A stretch of 64,000 nt of DNA from Rosistilla oblonga (GTDB lineage: Bacteria; Planctomycetota; Planctomycetia; Pirellulales; Pirellulaceae): positions 4,347,339 through 4,411,338 of the forward strand of contig NZ_CP036292.1 of NCBI RefSeq assembly GCF_007751715.1, read 5' to 3'. The notes beneath the pieces are model-generated. The model saw nothing but the letters and a program-made list of their open reading frames with translations. It was not told the DNA's origin and made no database searches. The translations under genes and the position numbers were made by a program. Below, piece after piece: positions 1,414-61,618 of this stretch; position 1 is the first letter of the stretch; each line of letters begins with the position of its first letter.

Positions 1414-4197
1414 CTACAACAGCCCGTTGCGTTTGCGCAACCACCATTCGACGCTCAACAGTCCAACAATGCACAGGAACCACGGCCAGCTTTGCCACAA
1501 CAACGTCTCCGACTGGACCACGCGTCCGGAACTGAGCGGCCGCAGCAGATCGACGATCTCGCCCAGCCGCTCCTCCTGCAAATATTCCCCACCGCCAGCC
1601 GAAGCCATCTCGATCAGAAGGGCTTCGTTGCACGCGATCTGTTCGAGTTCTTTGTTTTGAGGTGGAGCGACAACAAATTGAGTCTTCGCCTGGAACGCAG
1701 CCTCGTTGAACCCGCTCGCTCGAATCGTGACTTCGTATTCGCCCGGATCCAACGCCGCCGTCTCGCCGCGGTAATCGCCAGGCAGATTCTCCGCGGGTTG
1801 CAAATTGATCGTCGAAACGATCCGCCCGTCACGCCAGATCAACGCGTCGACGGTGGCATCGGCAACGAGATTCCCATCGGGGCCGCGCAGTTTCGCTCGC
1901 AGCGACGCGGAATCGCCCGCCTTGTATCGCAGCGGACCGCTATCCAGTGCCAGAAATTGGTCGCTGACAGCAAACGGTCGCGGCATCACCCAGCGGGCGA
2001 TCTGGTTCCAAAACCTCTGATGGATCTGATCCGCCACGCGGTATCGCCAACGCCAGCTTTCGTCGAAAGCGAAATAGAGCACGCGGCCGCCGCCGAAACT
2101 GCGGCCCACGATCGCGGGATGCCGATTGCCATCGACAACCGCTTCGGCCATCACCTCCGCGTCCGCTGTCGGTTCGACCAAAGCGATCCGCTGCGGCGCT
2201 GGCAACTGCTGCCAAAACTGATCGTTTTCATTTCCGATCCCCTGCAATGTCAGCGCCGGATTGTCGCGGCCGCTGTCGGTCAGTTGCAAGCCTTCAGCTG
2301 GTTTGGGGTCCCCATCGCCGGACCACGTCACCGGCAACAAGACGCCCAGCGATTCAGGCGTCAACCGCGACAGTTCCCCATGAGCCCCATCGATGAAAAT
2401 CATCCCGCCACCACGTTGGTCGACGAAGTCTCGCAGCCAAGAGAACTCGGTTGCGTTAAACACCGATTCGGGAAGATCGCCGTAGATGATCAGATCGTAT
2501 TCGAACAATGCCTGCTTCGAGTTCGGGAACGATCCGTCCGCCTCGCCTCGCGGCAACCGCTGCCTGGCATCATCGCTTTGCAAAATCACGGTTTGGATTT
2601 CCCAACCCGAATCGCGTTGGAACAGGTTCTTCAGATAGCGGACTTCCCAGCGGCTGCGGCTGTCGATCAACAACACCTTGTGCTGCTGAGTCACCGCCGC
2701 AAGACGGATCGCTTGCGAATTGTTACCGAGTTCGGTTTCGCCGTCGGCCGGCACGATCTTCGCCGTCAGTTCCAGCGGCACGCTGTGGCGTTGGACCTTG
2801 TTGTCAAACCGATCCATCGCGGCATCGACTAGCGGTTCGACCGCCAGATCGAAGTCGATCCGCCGCTGAGCCACGTCCATCGATTTCAATTCCTGCTGCC
2901 AGACAACCGTCTCGCCATCGCTGATCTGAACGACAAACGGCCGTTCGGCGGGCATGCGATCTTTGATCACAAGCGTCCCGCGGACGCGATCGGATTTGTA
3001 AACCGTGTCGGGATACTCCGCCTGCAACAGCGCCAAATCGGTTGGTTCGCTCTGCGTCCCGAAGCCGACGGTGTAAACCGCGTTCTGCTGAGACCGCGCG
3101 ACTCCAGCCAGCTGCGATGGCGAGGGACCTGCATTGTGTTGACCATCGGAAAACAAGACAGTAGCCGAACCAAGCGACCGCTCGCCTTCGGGATCGCTCG
3201 CTTCCTGAGCTGACTCGACAATCAAGCCGCTAGCGAGATCGGTTGTCATCGAGGATTGCACGTCGTCGAGTGATTCGGGGATCGGCACCTCGCCCCGCGA
3301 ACTCCAGATCGGCACCTCACGGGTTCCGACCAACGCGGCGACGTCGACGTGATGGTGATCTTTCAACCGCGCAATCAAGCCATCGTCGCGATCGAGCAAC
3401 CGCGCTTCGATGCGGCGGATTCGCAGCGATTGATCGAACAACTGCAGCCCCGCCAGCGCTGCGTCTCCCTGCGTTTGCATCCATTGTTGACAGTAGTTTG
3501 CGAATGCGTCGCTGAACGTCTGCTGATAAATCTGCAGGCCATTGACCGTGGCGATCAAGCGATCGCGGGTCGCGGACGCTTGCTCCGCATCGTCGATCGG
3601 TTCGCTTGCGAGCGACTTCACTTTGGCAAGCACCTCGATTTCGAAGGGCTCTGGCGAGACATGGTTTTCGTCAGCCAAACCGGCTGCCGCTTCGATCGCC
3701 GCGTCGACATCGGGAGCCAGATCCGTAACGGCATCTGTAAAGTTGCCGAGCGCCGTTTGCATCGCTTGTGGCGTGATCGCTCCCGTGCCCAGCGCCGCAA
3801 GCGTCTCGCGTCGAGTCGTAGAAATTCGCTCCGCCAGGTCGAACAATTTCGTGTCGAACTGCCCCTGCGGCAGCCAGCCCTGTTCGTGCGCGATCATCAA
3901 CTTTCGCGGCAGCGGCATTTGCGGATCGGCCGTCGTCATACTCTGCGATGCATCGACCAACAGTCGCACGTTTCCCAGTTCCCCGATCTCTTGCCGGTGA
4001 TGCAAAACCGGGCCGGTAAGACTGACGATCACCATCGCAATCGCGACCGATCGCAGACAAGGCAGCAGCCAACGCAAGCCACCGGGCAGATCAAAGCTCT
4101 CGCGGCGGTAATAACCAAACGCCAACGCGGCTCCCGCAACGGCCAAAAACAGCCCCAGCCAAACCGGCAGCTCTCCGACAAATCGCAAACTGGTCAT
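1414..4197 (-). CDS. Large membrane-anchored VWA / glutamine-amidotransferase-like protein
   Basis: This 927-residue protein has two N-terminal membrane helices (about residues 10-28 and 40-60) and one C-terminal helix just before a basic tail. Between them lies a von Willebrand A-like domain beginning LVDASQSM (a DxSxS MIDAS motif) and, around residues 580-720, a class I glutamine-amidotransferase-like fold marked by DFVDQRGGGMIFIDGAHG. This is the usual architecture of the large VWA partner in planctomycete MoxR clusters. Its ATG at 4197 overlaps the stop of the upstream BatA-like gene by 4 nt (ATGA), showing translational coupling. MIDAS motifs suggest metal-dependent protein-protein contact, possibly with MoxR as a chaperone; this is inference. 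No catalytic triad for a real amidotransferase was identified. Confidence 0.85.
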   Translation of the reverse strand: MTSLRFVGELPVWLGLFLAVAGAALAFGYYRRESFDLPGGLRWLLPCLRSVAIAMVIVSLTGPVLHHRQEIGELGNVRLLVDASQSMTTADPQMPLPRKLMIAHEQGWLPQGQFDTKLFDLAERISTTRRETLAALGTGAITPQAMQTALGNFTDAVTDLAPDVDAAIEAAAGLADENHVSPEPFEIEVLAKVKSLASEPIDDAEQASATRDRLIATVNGLQIYQQTFSDAFANYCQQWMQTQGDAALAGLQLFDQSLRIRRIEARLLDRDDGLIARLKDHHHVDVAALVGTREVPIWSSRGEVPIPESLDDVQSSMTTDLASGLIVESAQEASDPEGERSLGSATVLFSDGQHNAGPSPSQLAGVARSQQNAVYTVGFGTQSEPTDLALLQAEYPDTVYKSDRVRGTLVIKDRMPAERPFVVQISDGETVVWQQELKSMDVAQRRIDFDLAVEPLVDAAMDRFDNKVQRHSVPLELTAKIVPADGETELGNNSQAIRLAAVTQQHKVLLIDSRSRWEVRYLKNLFQRDSGWEIQTVILQSDDARQRLPRGEADGSFPNSKQALFEYDLIIYGDLPESVFNATEFSWLRDFVDQRGGGMIFIDGAHGELSRLTPESLGVLLPVTWSGDGDPKPAEGLQLTDSGRDNPALTLQGIGNENDQFWQQLPAPQRIALVEPTADAEVMAEAVVDGNRHPAIVGRSFGGGRVLYFAFDESWRWRYRVADQIHQRFWNQIARWVMPRPFAVSDQFLALDSGPLRYKAGDSASLRAKLRGPDGNLVADATVDALIWRDGRIVSTINLQPAENLPGDYRGETAALDPGEYEVTIRASGFNEAAFQAKTQFVVAPPQNKELEQIACNEALLIEMASAGGGEYLQEERLGEIVDLLRPLSSGRVVQSETLLWQSWPWFLCIVGLLSVEWWLRKRNGLL

Positions 4198-6416
4198 TGG
4201 CGAACTCTCGAAAACCGTTGTTGGAAGAAGAGTTCGACAAACAGCAGCCCCAACAGCGCAAACAACACCAGACGCCAGATCTCGCGTCCGTGCCGGCGGC
4301 TAGAATCCAACGCGAGAAACGCGGCGCCGTCGGTCACGACATCGGCACCTAACGCATCGGCAAGCGTCTGCAATTGTTCGGCATCGATCGTTTCGAGCTT
4401 CGATTCCCCGCGATCGATCTCGACGGCAAAGTGCCTCGGTGGCGCATCGGGCTGAGTCAACGTGTAAAGGCCGGGCTGATTTGTGCCCGCGAATCGGATC
4501 ACCGAACGCTGCTGATCGGCAACCGGTCGCAGCGACCGCTGTTTGTTCCCCGGAAGCGAGAGGACTTGTGTTGTGTCGGCCGCTGCCGCATCGTACAGCG
4601 CAACCAGAGTTTCTCCGGCGGTGAGGTTCGACGCCGGAACGCCGCGCGTCGCGATCGACGTCACCAACTGCTGAACCAACGGCAGAAAGACCGGACGCAG
4701 CGGCAGATTGTTCCAATCGGCATCTGCAGTAGTCGCGCACGCCATCACAAAACCTTTGCCAACAGGCTTTTCGACCCACAACGGGTCGCCGCTATCGAGC
4801 CGGATCAGGGTCGACGCCTGCGGATCGGTACCCGACGCGTCAGCTTTCGCCTTATTGGAAACAGCTTGGATTCGATTGTCCGACGTGCTCGCTGGCTTCG
4901 TCAACACATACCACTGCGCGATGTCGGCTTGTGCCAATTCGCTGCTGCCCGAGTTGCCGCTGTTGAAAATCTGCAGCGCAGGGTGATCGAAGTGTTGGGC
5001 GACGATCCGAGCGCCCCGATCTCCATCGTCCAGGCCGCCACCGATGCCTTGAATCGGCAGCGGGAACAGGCCACGCTGCTGATGCAAAACGCGGTTGTAC
5101 CAATCGACATCGACCTTGTTCCCTGTGAAGACGATCAGGCCGCCACCTCGCTGGACAAAGTCCTGCAGCTTCGCAGTACGTTCGTCGTCCAGCTTCGCAA
5201 CGTTGGCCATGATCACCACGCGAGCCCACTCCAACGTTTGCTGATCGACTTCATCGGTTTTCACGATCCGGGTTTCAACGAGATCGGCCAAAGGCATCTG
5301 CCCCAACGAAAACGGAGTCAGCGCAACCGCCAGAAAATCGGTTTCGCTTTCCATCGGTTTGCGGCTGGGATCGCCATCGATCATCAGGACTTCGATGCTA
5401 TCGATCACATCGACAACCGCGAGGTATTGATTGTCGGTCTTCAGATCGTCGCCGGCATCGACTTCGAATTTCAAGACGTGGGAACCGGCGGCATCAAATT
5501 TGTGAACAAACAGAGCTTGCGCCGTGGCGTCGCCAGCCACCGCCAACTCCGTCACGCCAACAAGGCGATCGTCGACGATGAACTGCAGCCGCGCTTCGGG
5601 AACATCCGAAACGCCGTAGTTTTTGACGCGAACACGAACCTTCAACTGTTGCCCGACGCCAAGTGCCCGCGTCGAAAGCTGAACGTCTTCGATCGCGATG
5701 TTCTGCTCCGCGTCGCCACTGCGTTGGATCAAAGTGATCGATGGCGGCACCGCCTGGCTATCGATCTGTTGACGAAACCGTTCGATCGCGGCGGGTGTCA
5801 GCGCATCGACATCGGATCGCTGGAAGTCGCTGATCAGGATCAGATTACGGCGGGAATTGGCCATCGCGGAGACGACCGATGCGCCCAGTTCCAGCGAATC
5901 GGCCAAGCTTGTCGCACCGCGGCCGCTGTCCAGAAACGGCAACTGGTCGGTGATCGATTTCGAATCGAATACAGGCGTATCGAACATCGGTGCGGGCGAA
6001 CCGCCGGTCAAAATCACCGAGGTGTCCGAGCCTTTACCGCTGCTGTCGACGATCAGCCGCGTGTCGTCGACAGCTTCCGCGATTCGCGTTCCCGAGGCAC
6101 CGATCGCATCCATCGAATAACTGTTATCCAAAAGGATCACCGTCGATGCGGGAGCGTCGCCCGGCAGCGATTGCCATCCGGTTAATACCGGCCGAGCCAA
6201 GCAGAAGGCGAGCAAGGCGGGAATCGCACAGCGGATCAACAGCAACAACAACTGCTCCAACCGCACCCGCCGACTGTTGTTGGCGACAACCGAATCCAAC
6301 AGATGCATCGCGCCCCAATCGAGCGTCTTGAATTTGCTGCGGTTGAGCAGATGGATGATCAACGGAATCGCAAACGCAGCGAGTCCGCCCAACAAAGCGA
6401 CGTTTAGAAAACTCAT
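4194..6416 (-). CDS. BatA-like VWA membrane protein
   Basis: The protein of 740 residues starts at ATG 6416 with [20 protein letters not shown], the characteristic BatA N-terminal helix, followed by [10 protein letters not shown] and a second helix near residues 55-75. A VWA domain follows with [12 protein letters not shown] (DxSxS MIDAS). Later there is a GAT-like segment with [16 protein letters not shown], and a hydrophobic helix close to the C-terminus. The open frame extends further upstream to 6665, but that extension overlaps the DUF58 gene and is not BatA-like, so it is rejected. The start overlaps the DUF58 stop by 4 nt (ATGA) and the end overlaps the next gene by 4 nt. In the family these proteins act at the inner membrane with MoxR ATPases; the exact process here is unknown. 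Confidence 0.88.
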
Positions 6417-7318
6417 CGCAGCCGCCTCCGTGTGGCCAGATACGATGCCAACGCTTCGGCATACGGTCGGTCGGTGACAACGGGAACCAGATCGATCCGG
6501 TTGCGGTGACATCCAGCCGTTAAGGCTTCGCGAAACGTCGCCAAGTTCTTCAGGTAAGCCTTTCCCAGATGAGCGGGGTCGATCAACCGACGATGCGACT
6601 TTTGTTCCAGCGATTGGAACTGAGTCCATTGTTTGAACGGGAAATCTAATTCGTCGGGATCCCAAATCTGGAAGATCACGATTTCATGCTTGGCGTGTCG
6701 GAAGTGAGCCAACGCTTTCATCAGTTCTTCGATGTTGCCAAACAAATCGGAGATGATCACCAGCAGACCGCGACGCGGGATCTTGGGGACCAATTGATGA
6801 AAGACCGATGAGAGTTCGGTTTCGCGTTCGGCTTTCAGACCGCTCAATTCGTTAACGATCGCGGTGAGATGCGTCGGCTTGGAGCGTGGCGGAATGATCC
6901 TTCGAACCGCGTCGTCGAAATGGATCAGCCCGACCGCATCCTGTTGGGCAAGCATCAGGTGTCCCAGGCAAGCGGCCAGCCTAACGGCGTAGTCGTGTTT
7001 GCTGACGCCGCCAGCGCGGGAACCGCAGTATCCCATCGAACCGCTTTTATCGAGCAGGATGTTGCAACGGAGGTTCGTCTCGTCTTCGTACTCGCGAATG
7101 TACAAGCGATCGGTTTTGCCAAACAGCTTCCAATCGATCGTGCGGATCTCGTCGCCATGGACGTACTGGCGGTGCTCTTTGAACTCGACGCTGAAGCCTT
7201 TGTGAGGCGATTTGTGCAGGCCGTTGCAAAAGCCCTCCATCACCTGCCGCGCCAGCAGCTGCAGGTTGGTCGTCTTCGCAAGGTCTTGCGGCGTTAGGAA
7301 ATCGGTGAGCTTGGTGAT
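6413..7318 (-). CDS. DUF58 domain protein (VWA-like), start codon uncertain
   Basis: The core reads [19 protein letters not shown], then [15 protein letters not shown] and [10 protein letters not shown], which are the conserved DUF58 block and a DxSxS MIDAS. DUF58 proteins are membrane- or cytoplasm-located VWA partners of MoxR ATPases. The first standard in-frame start is GTG at 7243, but the conserved reading continues upstream through [20 protein letters not shown], which resembles the normal DUF58 N-terminus. In that extension there is no ATG, GTG or TTG before an in-frame TAG at 7333-7331; ATC at 7318, preceded 10 nt upstream by AGGA, is the best candidate and gives 301 residues. If GTG 7243 is used the protein is 276 residues and lacks the first helix. 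MoxR ends one or two bases before the upstream stop, so the genes are coupled. Confidence 0.88.
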
Positions 7319-7334
7319 GGCAGGACGATCCTAA

Positions 7335-8345
7335 TTACAGCAACTGAGCTTTGGGACGCGGGACGTCGGCCAACAAGCGTTTGACAAGATCGGCCACGCT
7401 GATCCCTTCGGCTTCGGCGTTGAAGGTGGGGACGATTCGATGCCGCAGCACCGGCAGAGCGAGCGCTTCGATATCGTCGATCGTGACGTGATAGCGGCCA
7501 TGCAACAGCGCGCGAGCTTTGGATGCGAGCACCAGTTGCTGGCAGGCACGCGGGCCGGGGCCCCATTCGACCAATTGACGAACCCAAGGCAGACAACTCT
7601 CTTCGCGCGGTCGCACACTGCGGACGATATCCAAGACAAAGTTGCGGACGTGTTCGGGCAACGGCACCATCCGCACGGTCTTTTGGAAAGCGATGATCTC
7701 ATCGCCGGTGACAACGGGTTCGACCTTGCTGTCGAAACTGCCGGTGGTCCGGTCGATGATCATCGCTTCCTGATCGCGGGTCGGGTATTCGACGTTGACA
7801 AGAAACAGGAAGCGGTCGCGCTGCGCTTCGGGCAGCGGATACGTTCCCTCTTGTTCGATCGGGTTTTGCGTCGCCAGGACGAAAAACGGTTCCTGCAGCT
7901 TATAAGTCGTCCCGCCAACGGTGACTTCGTGCTCTTGCATCGCTTCCAACAGCGCCGCTTGAGTCTTCGGCGGCGTCCTATTGATCTCATCGGCCAACAG
8001 CATCTGCGTGAAGATCGGTCCTTTGTCGAAAACGAGTTCGCGGTGTCCGGCATCCGATTCCTGAATGATGTCGGTGCCGGTGATATCCGCGGGCATCAGA
8101 TCGGGCGTGAACTGGATCCGATGAAACGCCAGATGCATCGCATCGGCCAACGATTTGACCATCAGGGTCTTGGCGAGCCCCGGCACACCTTCCAACAGAC
8201 AGTGACCGCGGGCGAGGATCGCGATCAAAATCTGTTCGACGACGGTCTCCTGGCCAACGACAACGCGGCCCACCTGGGCGCGAATCTTTTCACAGGCTTG
8301 GACTAACTGCTCGGCGCGTTCTGGATCAGAGAAGGTTTCCGACAC
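7335..8345 (-). CDS. MoxR family AAA+ ATPase
   Basis: A 336-residue AAA+ ATPase with Walker A GVPGLAKT (residues 53-60), Walker B LLADEINR (Asp119, Glu120) and the MoxR signature [20 protein letters not shown] followed by QRDRFLF. MoxR proteins are chaperone-like ATPases that act on VWA-domain partners, which here are encoded immediately downstream (DUF58 and BatA-like). It is the first gene of the minus-strand cluster, and its promoter must lie in the 8346-8829 interval shared with the divergent PQQ-propeller gene. Length and motifs are standard. Substrate is not known. Confidence 0.95.
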
Positions 8346-8829
8346 GGTAGACGGTTCCTCGGGCTAAGGCGTGCGATGACAAATCCCCTGCTCGCTGCCA
8401 ATGCCGGCATTCGGTATCGATGCGAGATCGAAAGAAGGCGAATGACGCCGTAAGCAAACGGCCCCTGAGGGGGCGGTCGGAGATATCAAGAACAAGATAA
8501 ACGAGCGGGGTTGTCAATGCACGTTGCAACGCCCCGAGCCGAGGAGATTTCCGGGGAAATCATCGCTGCAGCGGTTGGAATCTGCGGCTGTGCAGCTTCC
8601 CCTAGATTGCCAAACCGCCACCGGATCCGACGCGATCCTTTGCGATTCCTTGAGGCAGCCAGCGCGAACATCCGCCGGTCGATACCTAATTTTGAAATGT
8701 TGCCTTGCCGCGATGAACTGGGGAACTCGCGCAGCCCCGCGGGGTTGGTGTGCGTTATAATCCTGGGTCACTCGATGCTACCGATAGCATGCTGAAGACA
8801 CACCTCACCAACCTTAGGATCGTTCATCG
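8346..8829. other. Divergent intergenic region between moxR and the PQQ-propeller gene
   Basis: No gene is evident in these 484 bases. Two inverted repeats lie on the moxR side: GCCCC-TGA-GGGGG around 8461-8473 and a perfect 7-bp pair GATTTCC/GGAAATC at 8546-8561. A consensus-like TATAAT at 8756-8761 stands 69 bases before the PQQ gene and could be its -10 element, although I see no good -35 hexamer at 17 bases. These are candidate control sites only. Confidence 0.5.
8756..8761 (+). promoter_or_regulatory. Possible -10 element of the PQQ-propeller gene
   Basis: TATAAT matches the bacterial sigma-70 consensus exactly and would put transcription start near 8768, about 60 bases ahead of the ATG at 8830. 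There is no convincing -35 box at the normal distance, so confidence is low. Confidence 0.35.
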
Positions 8830-10104
8830 ATGAAAAAGATTGTCTTGTCCATCGCGACGCTGTTTGCCATATCGAGTCTTGTTATCGCAGAGGACTGGCC
8901 GCAGTGGCGCGGCCAAGCGCGGGACGGCAAGAGCTCCGAAACCGGCCTGTTCAGCAGTTGGGGCGAAGATGGCCCGCCGAGCGTTTGGACCGCGGAGGGA
9001 CTCGGCGAAGGTTATGCCAGCGTCTCGGTCGTCGACGGAACGATCTACACGACGGGTAACTTCGAAGACGGGCAAGCTGTGGTTGCGATCGATGCCAACA
9101 GCGGCAAGCGTCTGTGGAAACAAAGCGTCACCAAATCCGAACCGAAACACAGCTACGAAGGCAGCCGTTCGACGCCGTCGGTCGATGGCGATCGGTTGTA
9201 CGTCGTGTCGAGCGACGGCGCGATCGTCTGTCTCGATCGAGCCGATGGATCGATTCGCTGGCAACGTGAATTCAGCGACTGGAAAGGCAAGATGATGAGC
9301 TCATGGGGATTCAGTGAATCTCCATTGGTCGACGGCGAGCGAGTCCTCTGCACTCCCGGCGGTCCACAGGGATTGGTCGTGGCGCTGAACAAGATGAATG
9401 GCGAAGAGATCTGGCGGTCGCAACTCGAAGCGTCCGACGACGATTCGCTAAAAGACGGCGCCGGTTATTCGTCGATCATGATCAGCAATGGCGGTGGCGT
9501 TAAACAATACGTCCAACTGGTCGGACGCGGCTTGGTCGGAATCCGTGCCAGTGACGGAAAACAACTGTGGCGTTATGCTCGCGTTGGCAACACCACCGCC
9601 AACATCCCGACTCCTTTGATCGACGGCGATCAAGTCTTCACCAGCACCGCTTACGGAACCGGATCGGCGCTGCTGAAGCTGAAATCCGATGGAGCTGGCG
9701 GCGTCGATGCCGAAGAAATCTATTGGCTCGAAGCCAACCAACTGCAGAACAAACATGGTGGGATGATTCTTATCGACGGCCACATCTACTGTGGCACCGG
9801 CAATGGCAACGGGCTGCCGATCTGCGTCGAGATGAAAACGGGCGAGATCGCCTGGGGACCCGAACGTGGGAAAGGCAAAGGCGAAACCAGTCTGGTCTAT
9901 GCCGATGATCACATCGTGATGCGGCGCGACGACGGGACCGTGATGCTGTTGCGAGCGACGCCCGAGAAAATGGACGTCTTGAATTCGTTTAAACCAGCGT
10001 TTCAACAAGGCAAAAGCTGGTCTCACCCGGTGATCAGCGGCGGCCGTTTGTACTTGCGAGAACAAGACAAACTGATGTGCTTTAACCTGGTTAAAGGTGC
10101 CTAG
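8830..10104 (+). CDS. Secreted PQQ-like beta-propeller repeat protein
   Basis: A 424-residue protein with a typical signal peptide (MKKIVLSIATLFAISSLVIA, cleavage probably before EDWPQWRG). EDWPQWRGQARDG is the conserved opening of the outer-membrane biogenesis BamB-like / PQQ-binding-like propeller proteins that are very numerous in planctomycetes. Repeated blade motifs are visible, such as AIDANSGKRLWKQ, CLDRADGSIRWQRE and RASDGKQLWRYA. The fold is an eight-bladed propeller; a PQQ cofactor is not implied and no dehydrogenase residues were recognised. It is expected in the periplasm or cell surface. It is monocistronic by position: the next gene is convergent. Confidence 0.9.
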   Translation: MKKIVLSIATLFAISSLVIAEDWPQWRGQARDGKSSETGLFSSWGEDGPPSVWTAEGLGEGYASVSVVDGTIYTTGNFEDGQAVVAIDANSGKRLWKQSVTKSEPKHSYEGSRSTPSVDGDRLYVVSSDGAIVCLDRADGSIRWQREFSDWKGKMMSSWGFSESPLVDGERVLCTPGGPQGLVVALNKMNGEEIWRSQLEASDDDSLKDGAGYSSIMISNGGGVKQYVQLVGRGLVGIRASDGKQLWRYARVGNTTANIPTPLIDGDQVFTSTAYGTGSALLKLKSDGAGGVDAEEIYWLEANQLQNKHGGMILIDGHIYCGTGNGNGLPICVEMKTGEIAWGPERGKGKGETSLVYADDHIVMRRDDGTVMLLRATPEKMDVLNSFKPAFQQGKSWSHPVISGGRLYLREQDKLMCFNLVKGA

Positions 10105-10154
10105 TTAAAGACAGCTGGCACAAGAGCCTCGCACATGCGAGGCCACAGAGGTTC

Positions 10155-10178
10155 GCGTCGGTTCTAGCGGACCGACGC
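10155..10178 (+). terminator. Hairpin after the PQQ-propeller gene
   Basis: GCGTCGGT (10155-10162) pairs with ACCGACGC (10171-10178) across an 8-base loop. There is no U-tract, so this may be a terminator that works with other factors or merely a stable stem between two convergent genes. Confidence 0.35.
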
Positions 10179-10218
10179 CGACAAACGATCCGACAGTTGA
10201 TCGGATCCAAACTGCTTT

Positions 10219-17160: not shown

Positions 17161-18393
17161 ATGGCTACCGACACAGTGGAACAAAACAGCGAAAAGCAAA
17201 CTCCGGCGAAACAAACTCCGGCGAAGCAGGGCATGAGCACCAAAAGTGTGCATGCGGGCGAAGACCGTCAGAAGCCGGGGGACGCGATCGCCGATCCGAT
17301 CTTCTGTTCATCGACCTTCACCTTTCGAACCACCGACGATGTGATCGATTACTGCGAAGGACGCAGCGACCGCGAGGAATATGGTCGTTACGGCAACCCG
17401 AACGAACGGAGCGTCGAACGCAAACTGGCGGCGCTCGATTGTGGCGAAGCAGCGATCGTTTACGGCAGCGGAATGGCGGCGATCGTGGGCCTGTTGATGG
17501 CCAAGTTGAACGCTGGCGACGAGATCGTCTTCTTCGATCAATGTTACCACCGCAGCCGAGAATTCTGCAGCAAGCATCTGGCCCGCTTCGGCGTCGTCAC
17601 GCGGCAAGTTCCCACCGGCGACTACGATGCGATGGAAGCTGCGATCAACGAAAATACGCGGATGTTGGTCAGCGAATCGCCGACCAATCCGCATCTGACC
17701 TGCATCGATCTGGAACAGTTCGTGGCGTTGGGCAAGGCGCACGAAGTCGAAACTTTGATCGATGCGACGTTGGCAACTCCTTACAACATCCAACCGCTGG
17801 AATTTGGCGTCGATTACGTGTTGCACTCGGCGACCAAATATCTCGGCGGCCACAACGATCTGTTGGCGGGCGTGATCGTCGGCAGTGCCGAAGCGTTGGA
17901 CCCGGTCCGCAATCTGCGCGGGATCATGGGTGCGGTGAACTCTCCGCACAACATGTATCTGTTGGAACGTGGGCTGAAGACGTTTGAACTTCGCATGCAG
18001 CGGCACAACGCCAACGGTCAAGCGATCGCCGAATTCTTGGAATCGCACCCGCGCGTCGAACGCGTTTATTACCCCGGTCTGAAGTCGCATCCGACTCACG
18101 AGATCGCGACCCAGACGATGCGTGGTTTCGGCGGCTTGGTCACCTTTACGATCAAAGACGCAGATATGCGGCAGACGGCGAACATCGTCGATGCCGCGAA
18201 GATCCCACGGATCGCACCGAGCCTGGGTGGAGTCGAATCGCTGATCGAGCAACCGTTGGTGATGAGCTACTACAAATGCACGCCAGAACAGCGGGCGTCG
18301 TATGGCATCGCCGACAACATGATCCGCATGTCGTGCGGCATCGAAAACACCGAAGACCTGATCGCCGATCTCGACCAAGCGTTGCAGGCGTAA
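17161..18393 (+). CDS. Trans-sulfuration PLP enzyme (cystathionine gamma-synthase/lyase family)
   Basis: A 410-residue fold-type I PLP enzyme of the Cys/Met metabolism family. The PLP lysine is in HSATKYLGGHND, with SESPTNPHL upstream and IDATLATPYNIQPL before it; the YGSGMAAI stretch contacts the cofactor phosphate. It would make or split a C-S bond of a homoserine derivative in methionine or cysteine synthesis; synthase, lyase and sulfhydrylase cannot be told apart here. The N-terminus has a repeated KQTPAKQTPAKQ tract before MSTKSVHAGE, which is where homologues usually begin (ATG 17233); either start is possible, and ATG 17161 has GGAAAG upstream. A strong terminator follows at 18429. Confidence 0.92.
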   Translation: MATDTVEQNSEKQTPAKQTPAKQGMSTKSVHAGEDRQKPGDAIADPIFCSSTFTFRTTDDVIDYCEGRSDREEYGRYGNPNERSVERKLAALDCGEAAIVYGSGMAAIVGLLMAKLNAGDEIVFFDQCYHRSREFCSKHLARFGVVTRQVPTGDYDAMEAAINENTRMLVSESPTNPHLTCIDLEQFVALGKAHEVETLIDATLATPYNIQPLEFGVDYVLHSATKYLGGHNDLLAGVIVGSAEALDPVRNLRGIMGAVNSPHNMYLLERGLKTFELRMQRHNANGQAIAEFLESHPRVERVYYPGLKSHPTHEIATQTMRGFGGLVTFTIKDADMRQTANIVDAAKIPRIAPSLGGVESLIEQPLVMSYYKCTPEQRASYGIADNMIRMSCGIENTEDLIADLDQALQA

Positions 18394-18693: not shown

Positions 18694-19497
18694 ATGTCGG
18701 CGGACGCTTCAGGATCTCCTAACTTGGACACCTCGGTCCAGCGACGACAAACGCTCGAGCACTGCATTCGAGATGCGCCGGCGGACGTCGAGCCCTATTT
18801 GGAACTGGCTCAGATCCACCGCGCGCTCGACAAACCGATCGAAGCGCAAAAGGTGCTCGAGAAAGCGGTTCGCATCTCCGGCGACCATCCCGAGGTGTTG
18901 TGGCAGCTCGAAGAAGCCGAACTCGCTCGCAGCCTGCAGCGATTAAAAGAGTTCAAGGAGCTTCATAACAAACATCCGACGCCCGATGTGACCAGCGATC
19001 TTGAACGCGCTCAAAATGAATGGGCGATCCGCCGGGCCGAGGTCTGCCGTAAGCGACTGCAACGCGATCCCAGCCAGACCAATCTTTACATCGTGATGGC
19101 TGAAGCGATGTACGAGATGGGGCAATTTGCCGAGGCGGCCGAAGCTTTGGAACCGGCGCTGAACGATCCGCAAGAATGCAGCAAAGCCCATCTGGTTCGC
19201 GGGATGTGTCTGCAAGCGACCAACCAGCCGCTCGAAGCGCTCGCTTCGTTTCGCGGAGCGGCTTTGCGGCGAGCGGTCCAGCCAGCGGCCAACATTAAAC
19301 TGGCGGCGCTTCGTCACGCGGCTGACCTCGCTTCGCGACTGGGGCTGCGGGCGACCTGCAAACGCTATCTCCGCGGCATCCTTCAATTGAATCCCAACGA
19401 TCACGTTGCAACCCAAACGCTGGCCCGATTGGAAGCCAAAGGGGCGTCCGACATTCACGACCTGGAGACCACTGAAAATGTCCCAAGCAATCGTTAA
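18694..19497 (+). CDS. TPR repeat protein, first gene of a WXG100-type triad
   Basis: A 267-residue soluble helical protein with TPR-like helix pairs, for example VEPYLELAQIHRALDKPIEA near residue 30, TNLYIVMAEAMYEMGQFAEA near residue 130, and KAHLVRGMCLQATNQPLEA near residue 165. No signal peptide or membrane segment. ATG 18694 has AGGA upstream. The last 20 bases overlap the start of the WXG100-like gene, so the two are translationally coupled and probably act together. TPR proteins normally bind partner proteins, here perhaps as a chaperone or adaptor for the downstream helical proteins; this is inference. Confidence 0.85.
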   Translation: MSADASGSPNLDTSVQRRQTLEHCIRDAPADVEPYLELAQIHRALDKPIEAQKVLEKAVRISGDHPEVLWQLEEAELARSLQRLKEFKELHNKHPTPDVTSDLERAQNEWAIRRAEVCRKRLQRDPSQTNLYIVMAEAMYEMGQFAEAAEALEPALNDPQECSKAHLVRGMCLQATNQPLEALASFRGAALRRAVQPAANIKLAALRHAADLASRLGLRATCKRYLRGILQLNPNDHVATQTLARLEAKGASDIHDLETTENVPSNR

Positions 19498-19747
19498 CCC
19501 CGACCACCTACGTCAATTCGCCGGGAACCTCAAAGTCTTCACCGAGGAGCTGCAACAACGGGCCGGTTCGCTGTCGTCGCAGATGAATCAATTGGGCGAA
19601 TCGTGGCGCGATCAACAACATCGTCGCTTCGCCGCAGAATTCGAAGATGAACTGCGGCAGATGGCTCGTTTCGTTCAATCGGCAGAGCAACACATCCCCT
19701 ATCTGCTTCGCAAAGCGGATCAGATCGATGCCTACCTAAAAGGATAA
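19478..19747 (+). CDS. WXG100-like (ESAT-6 superfamily) small helical protein
   Basis: The 89-residue product starts at ATG 19478 (GGAG 9 bases upstream) and overlaps the TPR gene by 20 bases. It is predicted as two amphipathic helices joined at a turn with LGESWRDQQHRRFAAEFED, giving the central W-x-x turn and following helix that define WXG100 proteins; the Trp is followed by R-D instead of x-G. The size, absence of signal peptide and position of the turn near the middle agree with secreted substrates of type VII-like systems. An ESX secretion ATPase (EssC/EccC) is not in this window. A longer frame from 19406 is out of keeping with the family. Confidence 0.75.
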   Translation: MSQAIVNPDHLRQFAGNLKVFTEELQQRAGSLSSQMNQLGESWRDQQHRRFAAEFEDELRQMARFVQSAEQHIPYLLRKADQIDAYLKG

Positions 19748-19752
19748 CCGCT

Positions 19753-20250
19753 GTGTCGAGCGATGTGAAAAGCGTCGACGCACTGCGCAATCTGTACGCG
19801 GCGCTGTTGCAATTGTCCGACCACTGCGACGACCACGTGACTCAGCTGCGTCAGTTGGCTCACCGCTTCCACGAGCAGATCACTGTCCAACGGCGGCAGT
19901 ATTGGCAGTCGCAGTTGCAACTGGCCGAGCGGCGATTGCAGATGGCTCACGAAGCGATGGCCCGCGCCAAGATTTCGCAAGACGCCGCCGACGGGACACG
20001 CAACACCGAAGCGGAGATCATGCTGGCGCGGAGCAAAAAGCGGGTCGCATATTGCCTGGATAAGCTAAACGTTTGCAAGCGGATCTCGGCGGAGGTCGAC
20101 CGCGTGGTCGATCGGTTCATCGGCGAACTCGGCGCGATGTCGGAGCTTTCCGAAAGCGGCCTGCCTCAATCGGCCAATCGACTGGCCGGCTGGATCGATG
20201 CTTTGGACCTCTACACCGACAACTCGGGATCCCCGCCGCCGGGACCGTAA
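19753..20250 (+). CDS. Helical coiled-coil protein, third gene of the WXG100 triad
   Basis: A 165-residue protein with a GTG start at 19753 (AAGGA 8 bases upstream), only 5 bases after the WXG100-like gene. It is almost wholly alpha-helical, with a long stretch rich in Gln, Arg and Leu such as YWQSQLQLAERRLQMAHEAM, two conserved-looking cysteines in the region AYCLDKLNVCKR, and a short Ser/Pro/Gly tail. No signal peptide or membrane helix. I do not recognise a named family. Tight coupling suggests a partner of the WXG100-like protein, either as co-substrate or scaffold. Confidence 0.75.
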   Translation: MSSDVKSVDALRNLYAALLQLSDHCDDHVTQLRQLAHRFHEQITVQRRQYWQSQLQLAERRLQMAHEAMARAKISQDAADGTRNTEAEIMLARSKKRVAYCLDKLNVCKRISAEVDRVVDRFIGELGAMSELSESGLPQSANRLAGWIDALDLYTDNSGSPPPGP

Positions 20251-20398: not shown

Positions 20399-20857
20399 AT
20401 GGAGCGTACGCTTGTACTGCTGAAACCCGATTGCGTTCAACGCCGTTTGATGGGCGAGATCATCAGCCGATTCGAAGCCAAGGGGCTGAACATCGTCGGC
20501 ATGAAGATGATGCACGTGACTCCCGATCTGGCCAAACAACATTATGCAGAGCATGTTGAGAAGCCATTTTACCCAAGCCTGGAGTCGTTCATCACCAGCG
20601 CGCCGATCGTCGCATTGGCGATCGACGGGATCGAAGTCATCCGCGTGATGCGCGACCTGCTGGGTGCGACCAACGGTTGCAATGCAGCTCCCGGAACGAT
20701 CCGTGGCGATTTCAGCAACAGCCGCCAAATGAACCTGGTTCACGCGTCGGACGGCCCCGAAGCTGCCGCTCGCGAACTGGACCTCTACTTCGGCACTGGC
20801 GATCTCTGCGATTTCGACCACGTCACCGAAGAGTTCATGCGCGCCGCCGACGAATAG
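20399..20857 (+). CDS. ndk: Nucleoside diphosphate kinase
   Basis: A 152-residue NDK. RTLVLLKPDCVQRRLMGEI contains the nucleotide-binding Lys9; NLVHASDGPEAAARE carries the phosphohistidine His115; APGTIRGDF is the family motif. The enzyme equalises nucleoside triphosphate pools in the cytoplasm. ATG 20399 has AGGAGA upstream. It follows the WXG100 triad after about 150 bases and may have its own promoter. Length and motifs are canonical. Confidence 0.97.
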   Translation: MERTLVLLKPDCVQRRLMGEIISRFEAKGLNIVGMKMMHVTPDLAKQHYAEHVEKPFYPSLESFITSAPIVALAIDGIEVIRVMRDLLGATNGCNAAPGTIRGDFSNSRQMNLVHASDGPEAAARELDLYFGTGDLCDFDHVTEEFMRAADE

Positions 20858-60091: not shown

Positions 60092-60217
60092 TCGGTCGAT
60101 TCGCTGCAAACGCTATCTTTTCTCCGACGCTCAGGGTCGGCGGTTTGAATGGTCGAAGGAGACCGAAGGCTTTCCAGAGTCGCTGGTTCCTTCCTCCTTC
60201 CCTCGGGCTGTAGATCG

Positions 60218-61618
60218 ATGTTTGTTAACGCGCCGGTACATTGGCATGAAGGAATGTTTCTGAGACCTCAGCACTTCCAGATCTCCGAACGAAACATTCA
60301 CGACCAAATCCGCGACAACGTCCAATGGAACCGCCACTTCAGTTGGGGCCTGCGGCGTTTTCGACTCGACCCGACAGCGCTCGCCAACAACCGGATCGTC
60401 GTGTCGGAACTGGCGCTGCGGATGCGCGACGGCACGCTTGTCGCATATCCCGAATCGGGCAGCCTCCCCGAACTCGATCTGCGACAGGCGATGTTGGGCA
60501 AACAAACGCTGACTCTATTTGCAGCGATTCCGAAGCTGGAAGCTGCCGCGGCTGCGGCCACGCGCTACCGCGTCGAATCGCTCGATCTGGAGGATGCTAA
60601 TTCGGGCCAGAATCCACGCCCGATCCAGCTGCGCCGGTTAAACGTTCGGTTGTTATCCGATGCCGACGATCACGCCGGTTACGCCACGATGCCGTTGCTG
60701 CGGGTCCGCCGCGCCGATCACGCCGAGGGAGCTCCCGAGCTGGACCGGACGTTCATCCCGCCGCTGTTGGCCGTCGATGCCTGGGCGACGCTGGAGCAAG
60801 AGATCGTGCGGCCGGTGTTCGATCGGATCGGCAAAAAGCTGGATTTGGTCTCCAACCAAGTCGTCTCGCGAGGGATCACCTTCGATTCGACTTCGCAAGG
60901 CGATCGGATGATCCTGGAACAGATGCGGGTGATGAACGAAGCGTATGCCGAACTGAGCGTGCAGGCCTTCACACCGGGCATCCATCCGTTGGAGATCTTC
61001 CATCAGCTGTTGAGCTTTGTCGGCCGGATGGCTGTCTTCACCGCGGGTCGCCGCGTCCCCGATCTGCCGAAGTACGACCACGACGATCTGGGCAGCTGTT
61101 TCTGGACGGCGCGGCGGTTGGTCGATAGCGTCTTGGACGCGGTGATCGAAGCCGAATACAGCGAGCGAGCTTTTGTGGGAGCGGGCCAACGGGTGCAGGT
61201 CGCGCTCGAACCGGCTTGGTTGGAACCGGGCCAACGTCTGTTTGTCGCCGTCGCATCGACGCTGCCGACCGAACAGACTCGCGGTCTGGTCGAGAAGCGG
61301 TTGGACATGAAGATCGGTGCCGGAAGCACTGTCGACGAACTGTATCGACTGGGGCGAGCCGGGCTGCAGTTCAGCTATCGCGCCGATCCGCCGCGGTGTC
61401 TGCCGATGCGACCGGGGCGAGTTTTCTTCAGCGTCGATCCCAAGGCGTCGGCCGACCAATGGGCCGCCGTCGAACGTGGGCTCTCGCTGGCGGTTCGCTT
61501 CAACGAGAACCTGATCGCTGGCGACGTGCAAAACCGCCGCGCGATCGATGTCGTGATCGATGGCCGCCCGGTGACGTTGGAATTTGTGCTGTACGTCGTC
61601 CCACCATCGGCGGTTTAA
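60218..61618 (+). CDS. tssK: Type VI secretion baseplate protein TssK-like
   Basis: A 466-residue protein from ATG 60218 (a longer start at 60149 lacks resemblance). The N-terminus VHWHEGMFLRPQHFQISER is the TssK signature (W-x-E-G-M-F-L-x-P-Q-H-F-Q) of the baseplate adaptor that links sheath and trimeric membrane complex. The length is close to the usual 440-450. No other T6SS gene (tssBCEFGLM, clpV, hcp, vgrG) lies in the window, so its partners would be elsewhere or it has another use. It is followed 235 bases later by ftsK. Confidence 0.88.
   Translation: MFVNAPVHWHEGMFLRPQHFQISERNIHDQIRDNVQWNRHFSWGLRRFRLDPTALANNRIVVSELALRMRDGTLVAYPESGSLPELDLRQAMLGKQTLTLFAAIPKLEAAAAAATRYRVESLDLEDANSGQNPRPIQLRRLNVRLLSDADDHAGYATMPLLRVRRADHAEGAPELDRTFIPPLLAVDAWATLEQEIVRPVFDRIGKKLDLVSNQVVSRGITFDSTSQGDRMILEQMRVMNEAYAELSVQAFTPGIHPLEIFHQLLSFVGRMAVFTAGRRVPDLPKYDHDDLGSCFWTARRLVDSVLDAVIEAEYSERAFVGAGQRVQVALEPAWLEPGQRLFVAVASTLPTEQTRGLVEKRLDMKIGAGSTVDELYRLGRAGLQFSYRADPPRCLPMRPGRVFFSVDPKASADQWAAVERGLSLAVRFNENLIAGDVQNRRAIDVVIDGRPVTLEFVLYVVPPSAV

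What the first reader, a model, noticed from the sequence alone, without database searches (positions are those of the whole stretch)
18694..20250. TPR - WXG100-like - helical protein triad, a possible type VII-like module
Three coupled genes (20-base overlap, then a 5-base gap) encode a TPR protein, an 89-residue helix-turn-helix protein with a central W-x-x turn, and a 165-residue helical protein with a Cys pair. Together they look like substrate, partner and adaptor of an ESX-like or wholly separate secretion or scaffold system. What the sequence shows: coupling and motifs. What is known: WXG100 proteins are small helical hairpins that pass through EccC-type ATPases. Inference: a planctomycete-specific module.
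Basis: partly seen in the sequence, partly recalled or inferred. Interest (0 to 1): 0.7.

Follow-up and report, generated by a model that had tools for sequence, protein, structure and literature searches.

The report
Split type VII-like module in planctomycetes
This spot holds half of a four-gene machine found in many planctomycete bacteria (two small WXG100-type proteins, a long helical partner and a motor related to those of type VII secretion); the other half lies about 3.6 million bases away, and the four genes always occur together, which suggests a stripped-down type VII-like exporter in cells with two membranes.

Summary
The 89-aa gene is a genuine WXG100 protein: over the Pfam cut-off, family match in 35/35 relatives, a predicted helical hairpin with an invariant W-(R)-D turn, and closest to H. 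pylori HP0062 and Bacillus EsxB. It is followed by a 165-aa protein predicted as a long coiled-coil hairpin. In most relatives the next genes are a second small WXG100-like protein and a ~1,320-aa membrane ATPase of EccC/EssC type. In this genome those two lie 3.6 Mb away. All four genes occur in exactly the same 36 of 60 relatives; the WXG100 gene and the ATPase match in exactly the same 27 of 195 phylum-wide genomes. Only the middle of three ATPase domains is intact. No YukC/EssB, EccB or YukD was found. The TPR gene is an optional neighbour, not core, and the 'Cys pair' is not conserved. The kind was noted in one 2012 footnote as 'mobile versions of T7SS'; I found no experiment on it. Best reading: a minimal type VII-like exporter of WXG100 proteins across the inner membrane. 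Secretion itself is inferred.

The parts
18694..19497 (+). TPR protein, 267 aa, optional neighbour of the module; overlaps the WXG100 gene by 20 bases
   Evidence: TPR_14 2.3e-11. Next to wxgA only in G000-G002, G014, G026, G029; homologues lie elsewhere in G011 and G024, and in G012, which lacks the module.
19478..19747 (+). wxgA: WXG100 protein, 89 aa, W43-R44-D45 in the hairpin turn
   Evidence: PF06013 3.3e-10, over the cut-off; family match in 35/35 relatives; PDB profile hits HP0062 4.3e-11 and EsxB 1.7e-7; predicted hairpin pLDDT 93.4; the first 34 Foldseek matches are WXG100 proteins, best VIA match HP0062 Z 10.9.
19753..20250 (+). hel: 165-aa protein, predicted as one long antiparallel coiled-coil hairpin (helices 6-78 and 85-157); Y154 invariant, W51 invariant or nearly so
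   Evidence: In the same 36 of 60 genomes as the other three genes. No Pfam family. The other two core genes are outside the window: wxgB at G000:C1:768058-768309 (-) and the EccC-like ATPase at 763882-767865 (-).

Best explanation
The locus is one half of a four-gene type VII-like module: WXG100-A (wxgA), long-hairpin protein (hel), WXG100-B (wxgB) and a membrane-anchored ATPase of EccC/EssC type. In this genus it has been split into two chromosomal sites. Shown: homology, gene order, exact co-occurrence, and one intact ATPase domain of three. Inferred: wxgA and wxgB pair as hairpins. The pair, with hel as co-substrate or chaperone, docks on the ATPase, which oligomerises in the inner membrane and uses ATP hydrolysis at its middle domain to push the helical proteins across that membrane. 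It has no detectable equivalent of YukC/EssB, EccB or YukD. The TPR protein is an optional accessory.
For: WXG100 identity of wxgA. wxgB is WXG100-related: hhalign wxgA vs wxgB E 6e-6 (prob. 85%); best PDB hit S. aureus EsxA 3.6e-4; cross-hits between the two profiles; PF06013 in 4/23 members at E <= 0.01. ATPase: TIGR03924 EccCa 4e-35 and TIGR03928 EssC 3e-28; profile vs PDB T. curvata EccC 5e-37, EccC5 8e-29, YukB 2e-25, all far above DNA-translocase FtsK at about 1e-7; hydrophobic TM segments near 210-265; Walker A and B intact only in the middle domain in 16/16. Obligate set: the same 36 of 60 genomes for all four genes; the same 27 of 195 for wxgA and ATPase. Order wxgA-hel-wxgB-ATPase in most loci with room. 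Splits at different joints in several genomes leave co-occurrence intact.
Against: No secretion data. The mycobacterial YxxxD/E export motif is absent (0/35 wxgA, 0/23 wxgB), and the C-terminal HxxxD/ExxhxxxH pattern is in only 10/35 and 9/23. No WXG-fused toxin or other recurrent cargo gene was seen. No outer-membrane component was found. hel has no sequence relation to WXG100.
Confidence: 0.66

Rival explanations
1. The four genes form an intracellular or membrane-bound motor complex that secretes nothing. The WXG100 pair and hel are fixed subunits or regulators of an FtsK-like pump, for example in DNA handling or the FtsZ-less division of planctomycetes.
For: No detectable cargo genes, no canonical export motif, none of three T7SS membrane-partner families found; one copy per genome.
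Against: The ATPase is far closer to EccC/EssC than to DNA-translocating FtsK, and its Pfam scan lists only the FtsK/SpoIIIE motor domain among FtsK parts. The genome has its own FtsK in the window. Patchy distribution (27 of 195 genomes) argues against a core cell function.
Confidence: 0.22
2. The window triad is a stand-alone TPR/WXG100/helical scaffold unrelated to type VII secretion.
For: The three genes are tightly coupled here, and the ATPase is not nearby in this genome.
Against: The TPR gene was seen next to the pair in only 6 of 36 carriers, while the distant ATPase and wxgB are never missing and are normally in the same operon.
Confidence: 0.04
3. A full T7SSa or T7SSb relative whose other membrane parts have diverged beyond recognition.
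For: WXG100 pair plus EccC/EssC-type ATPase, as in all T7SS; unassigned genes elsewhere could be diverged partners.
Against: No recurrent further gene family around about 100 loci; no YukC, EccB or YukD in the genome; in the fullest architectures only four genes recur.
Confidence: 0.08

Closest known systems
H. pylori HP0062 (PDB 3FX7/2GTS), a WXG100-like dimer in a Gram-negative
   Same: Best sequence and structure neighbour. The same WRD in place of WXG, and reported to be clustered with an FtsK/SpoIIIE-domain protein (PMC3397514).
   Different: I did not compare gene order or look for hel and wxgB there; the function of HP0062 is also unknown.
[quoted passage not shown] 2012, PMC3482391, table footnote 6)
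   Same: The description fits exactly and names planctomycetes; domain pattern confirmed here.
   Different: The footnote mentions neither the second WXG100-like gene nor hel, and calls the systems mobile. Here there is one chromosomal copy per genome with four obligate genes.
T7SSa/T7SSb (EccC or EssC plus EsxA/EsxB)
   Same: WXG100 hairpins and a membrane ATPase with tandem FtsK/SpoIIIE domains.
   Different: Different phylum and envelope; no EccB, YukC/EssB or YukD found; the middle ATPase domain is the intact one; no YxxxD/E; hel has no counterpart I could find.

Membership tests
WXG100 (PF06013) | Curated HMM match | tested here: met
   40.5 bits against a cut-off of 27.3; 35/35 relatives match at E <= 0.01. 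NCBIfam TIGR03930 33.2 bits is under its cut-off of 44.85.
WXG100 (PF06013) | Two-helix hairpin of about 100 aa with W-x-G in the turn | tested here: met
   Hairpin H8-42/H46-88. The turn is W-(R)-D, not W-x-G, as in HP0062.
WXG100 (PF06013) | ATPase-dependent export without a signal peptide | not testable with these tools
   Needs an experiment.
Type VII secretion system | EccC/EssC-type membrane ATPase with tandem FtsK/SpoIIIE domains | tested here: met
   It scores below the equivalog cut-offs of EccCa (121.7 against 509) and EssC (98.1 against 778), so it is a relative and not an orthologue by those models.
Type VII secretion system (subtypes a and b) | Subtype membrane partners EccB / YukC(EssB) / YukD-like | tested here: not met
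   No match to YukC; EccB and YukD only chance-level, under the cut-off. EccD, EccE, EssA and EsaA were not searched for.
Type VII secretion system | C-terminal YxxxD/E signal on substrates (mycobacterial type) | tested here: not met
   0/35 wxgA and 0/23 wxgB.
Type VII secretion system | Shown protein secretion | not testable with these tools
   None known for this module.

The most novel reading that the evidence does not exclude
A self-sufficient minimal type VII system in diderm planctomycetes: one EccC-like motor, a WXG100-A/WXG100-B pair and a new long-hairpin family (hel), working without EccB/D/E or EssA/EssB/EsaA. It would deserve its own T7SS subtype.
Probability: 0.35. Interest if true: 0.75.

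Novelty: new variant of a known kind. Interest (0 to 1): 0.58.

Why it matters
Type VII secretion is described for Actinomycetota and Bacillota (PMC11217815). A four-gene set with exact co-occurrence across a diderm phylum makes it directly testable whether an EccC-like motor plus WXG100 proteins is enough for export, and what the core of all T7SS is. It also defines a new partner family (hel) and shows why tools that look only at neighbouring genes miss such systems: the locus is split in several lineages.

Tried and rejected
Triad as the functional unit: rejected, TPR not conserved. Disulfide or Cys-pair idea for hel: not conserved. hel as a WXG100 relative: no profile support. hel fold neighbours: only generic coiled coils, best VIA Z 11.7, within the range that means little for helical bundles; PPE, EspB or LXG folds were not among the rows shown, which excludes nothing. 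Conserved cargo or extra components near about 100 loci: only antisense artefacts, common regulators and a HEAT-like gene confined to the Rubripirellula group. The first iterative HMMs for wxgA and wxgB merged, so the non-iterated profiles and hhalign were used instead.

Full report
What is there. Upstream lies a Cys/Met-type PLP enzyme (17161-18393) and downstream a nucleoside diphosphate kinase (20399-20857), both identified by me from the translated sequence and not part of the module.

The 89-aa protein is WXG100. It passes the Pfam cut-off (40.5 bits against 27.3), and 35 of 35 aligned members match the family. It is the only PF06013 hit in the genome. The profile finds H. pylori HP0062 (4e-11) and EsxB of Bacillus (2e-7) in the PDB. 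The AlphaFold2 model (pLDDT 93) is two helices with W43-R44-D45 at the turn. The first 34 Foldseek matches are all WXG100 proteins, and HP0062 ranks first by VIA (Z 10.9, 1.5 A over 84 residues). VIA Z under 13 is weak evidence for helical bundles, but here sequence, turn residue and ranking agree. W and D are invariant; the G of WXG is a D, as reported for HP0062 (PMC3397514).

The 165-aa protein (hel) has no known family. It is predicted as one antiparallel coiled-coil hairpin, helices 6-78 and 85-157, with Y154 invariant and W51 invariant or nearly so. It is not detectably related to WXG100.

Two missing partners. The genome encodes a 1,327-aa protein (G000:C1:763882-767865) with two FtsK/SpoIIIE matches. 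By profile it is far closer to EccC and EssC/YukB than to DNA translocases. Hydrophobic TM segments lie near residues 210-265. Only the middle of the three ATPase-like domains keeps Walker A and B, in 16 of 16 sequences. Just upstream sits an 83-aa gene (wxgB) whose family is WXG100-related.

Linkage. In most relatives the order is wxgA-hel-wxgB-ATPase in one run on one strand. Of 80 named loci, 46 show all four genes (43 scored in exactly that order, 3 with nested open reading frames listed differently); the remainder are mostly short contigs or belong to the Rubripirellula/Rhodopirellula group, where wxgB-ATPase stands alone, as in the window's genome. Breaks occur after hel (own genus, G014, G191) and after wxgB (G166, G233, G207). 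In four genomes (G077, G124, G157, G181) wxgA and the ATPase are far apart or on different contigs, and hel and wxgB were not recognised within the flanks held.

Co-occurrence. All four genes are found in exactly the same 36 of 60 relatives. wxgA and the ATPase are found in the same 27 of 195 genomes across the phylum. The chance of drawing identical sets is about 1e-16.6 and 1e-33 if genomes were independent. They are not independent, so these figures overstate the significance. The complete absence of exceptions in a patchy distribution is the point.

TPR gene. It was seen beside wxgA only in the own genus and G014, G026, G029. Homologues occur elsewhere in G011 and G024, and in G012, which lacks the module. 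It is an accessory at most.

What is missing. YukC/EssB gave no match; EccB and YukD gave only chance-level matches under the cut-off. No cargo family recurs near about 100 loci. The YxxxD/E motif is absent.

Mechanism (inferred). The two WXG100 hairpins pair; hel is a partner or co-cargo; the ATPase oligomerises in the inner membrane and drives the helical proteins across with its middle domain. How anything would cross the outer membrane is unknown.

Known or new. A 2012 table footnote already states that planctomycetes and other lineages have solo WXG domains with a distinct YueA-like ATPase of three HerA/FtsK domains, only the middle one active, and calls them mobile versions of T7SS (PMC3482391). 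Recent T7SS subtype work covers only Bacillota and Actinomycetota (PMC11217815). Other literature searches in the open-access library found no study of this module; most subscription papers were not searchable. Hence: new variant of a known kind. The second WXG100-like gene, hel, the obligate four-gene set and the repeated splitting are what this work adds.

Noticed in passing
L061 (G022:C3), 4102-10198: A second, divergent WXG100 system in one relative: VWA-domain proteins, a WXG100 protein (PF06013 1.7e-7), a 436-aa protein without a family, a small protein and a 1,059-aa FtsK/HerA-type ATPase in a row.
   Followed up: partly
window 60149-61618 (+): T6SS baseplate protein TssK/VasE (PF05936 2.9e-73), directly upstream of the genome's FtsK gene (61854 to the window end); no other T6SS gene was looked for.
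   Followed up: partly
L039 4851-9717 (G000:C1 about 41.8-46.7 kb): Three-gene run: a 304-aa protein without a Pfam match, a 673-aa AAA ATPase and a 670-aa FtsK/SpoIIIE protein that, by eye, may carry a nuclease-like segment; could be a defence or DNA-handling system.
   Followed up: partly
L197 (Verrucomicrobia subdivision 3 MAG) and L189 (Anaerolineae MAG): The full four-gene order occurs in a Verrucomicrobia MAG and a broken ATPase in an Anaerolineae MAG; horizontal transfer or binning error.
   Followed up: no
L132, L133, L135, L136, L140, L141, L142: In the Rubripirellula group a HEAT-like repeat gene precedes wxgB, much as a TPR gene precedes wxgA in the window: repeat proteins next to both halves of the split locus.
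   Followed up: no
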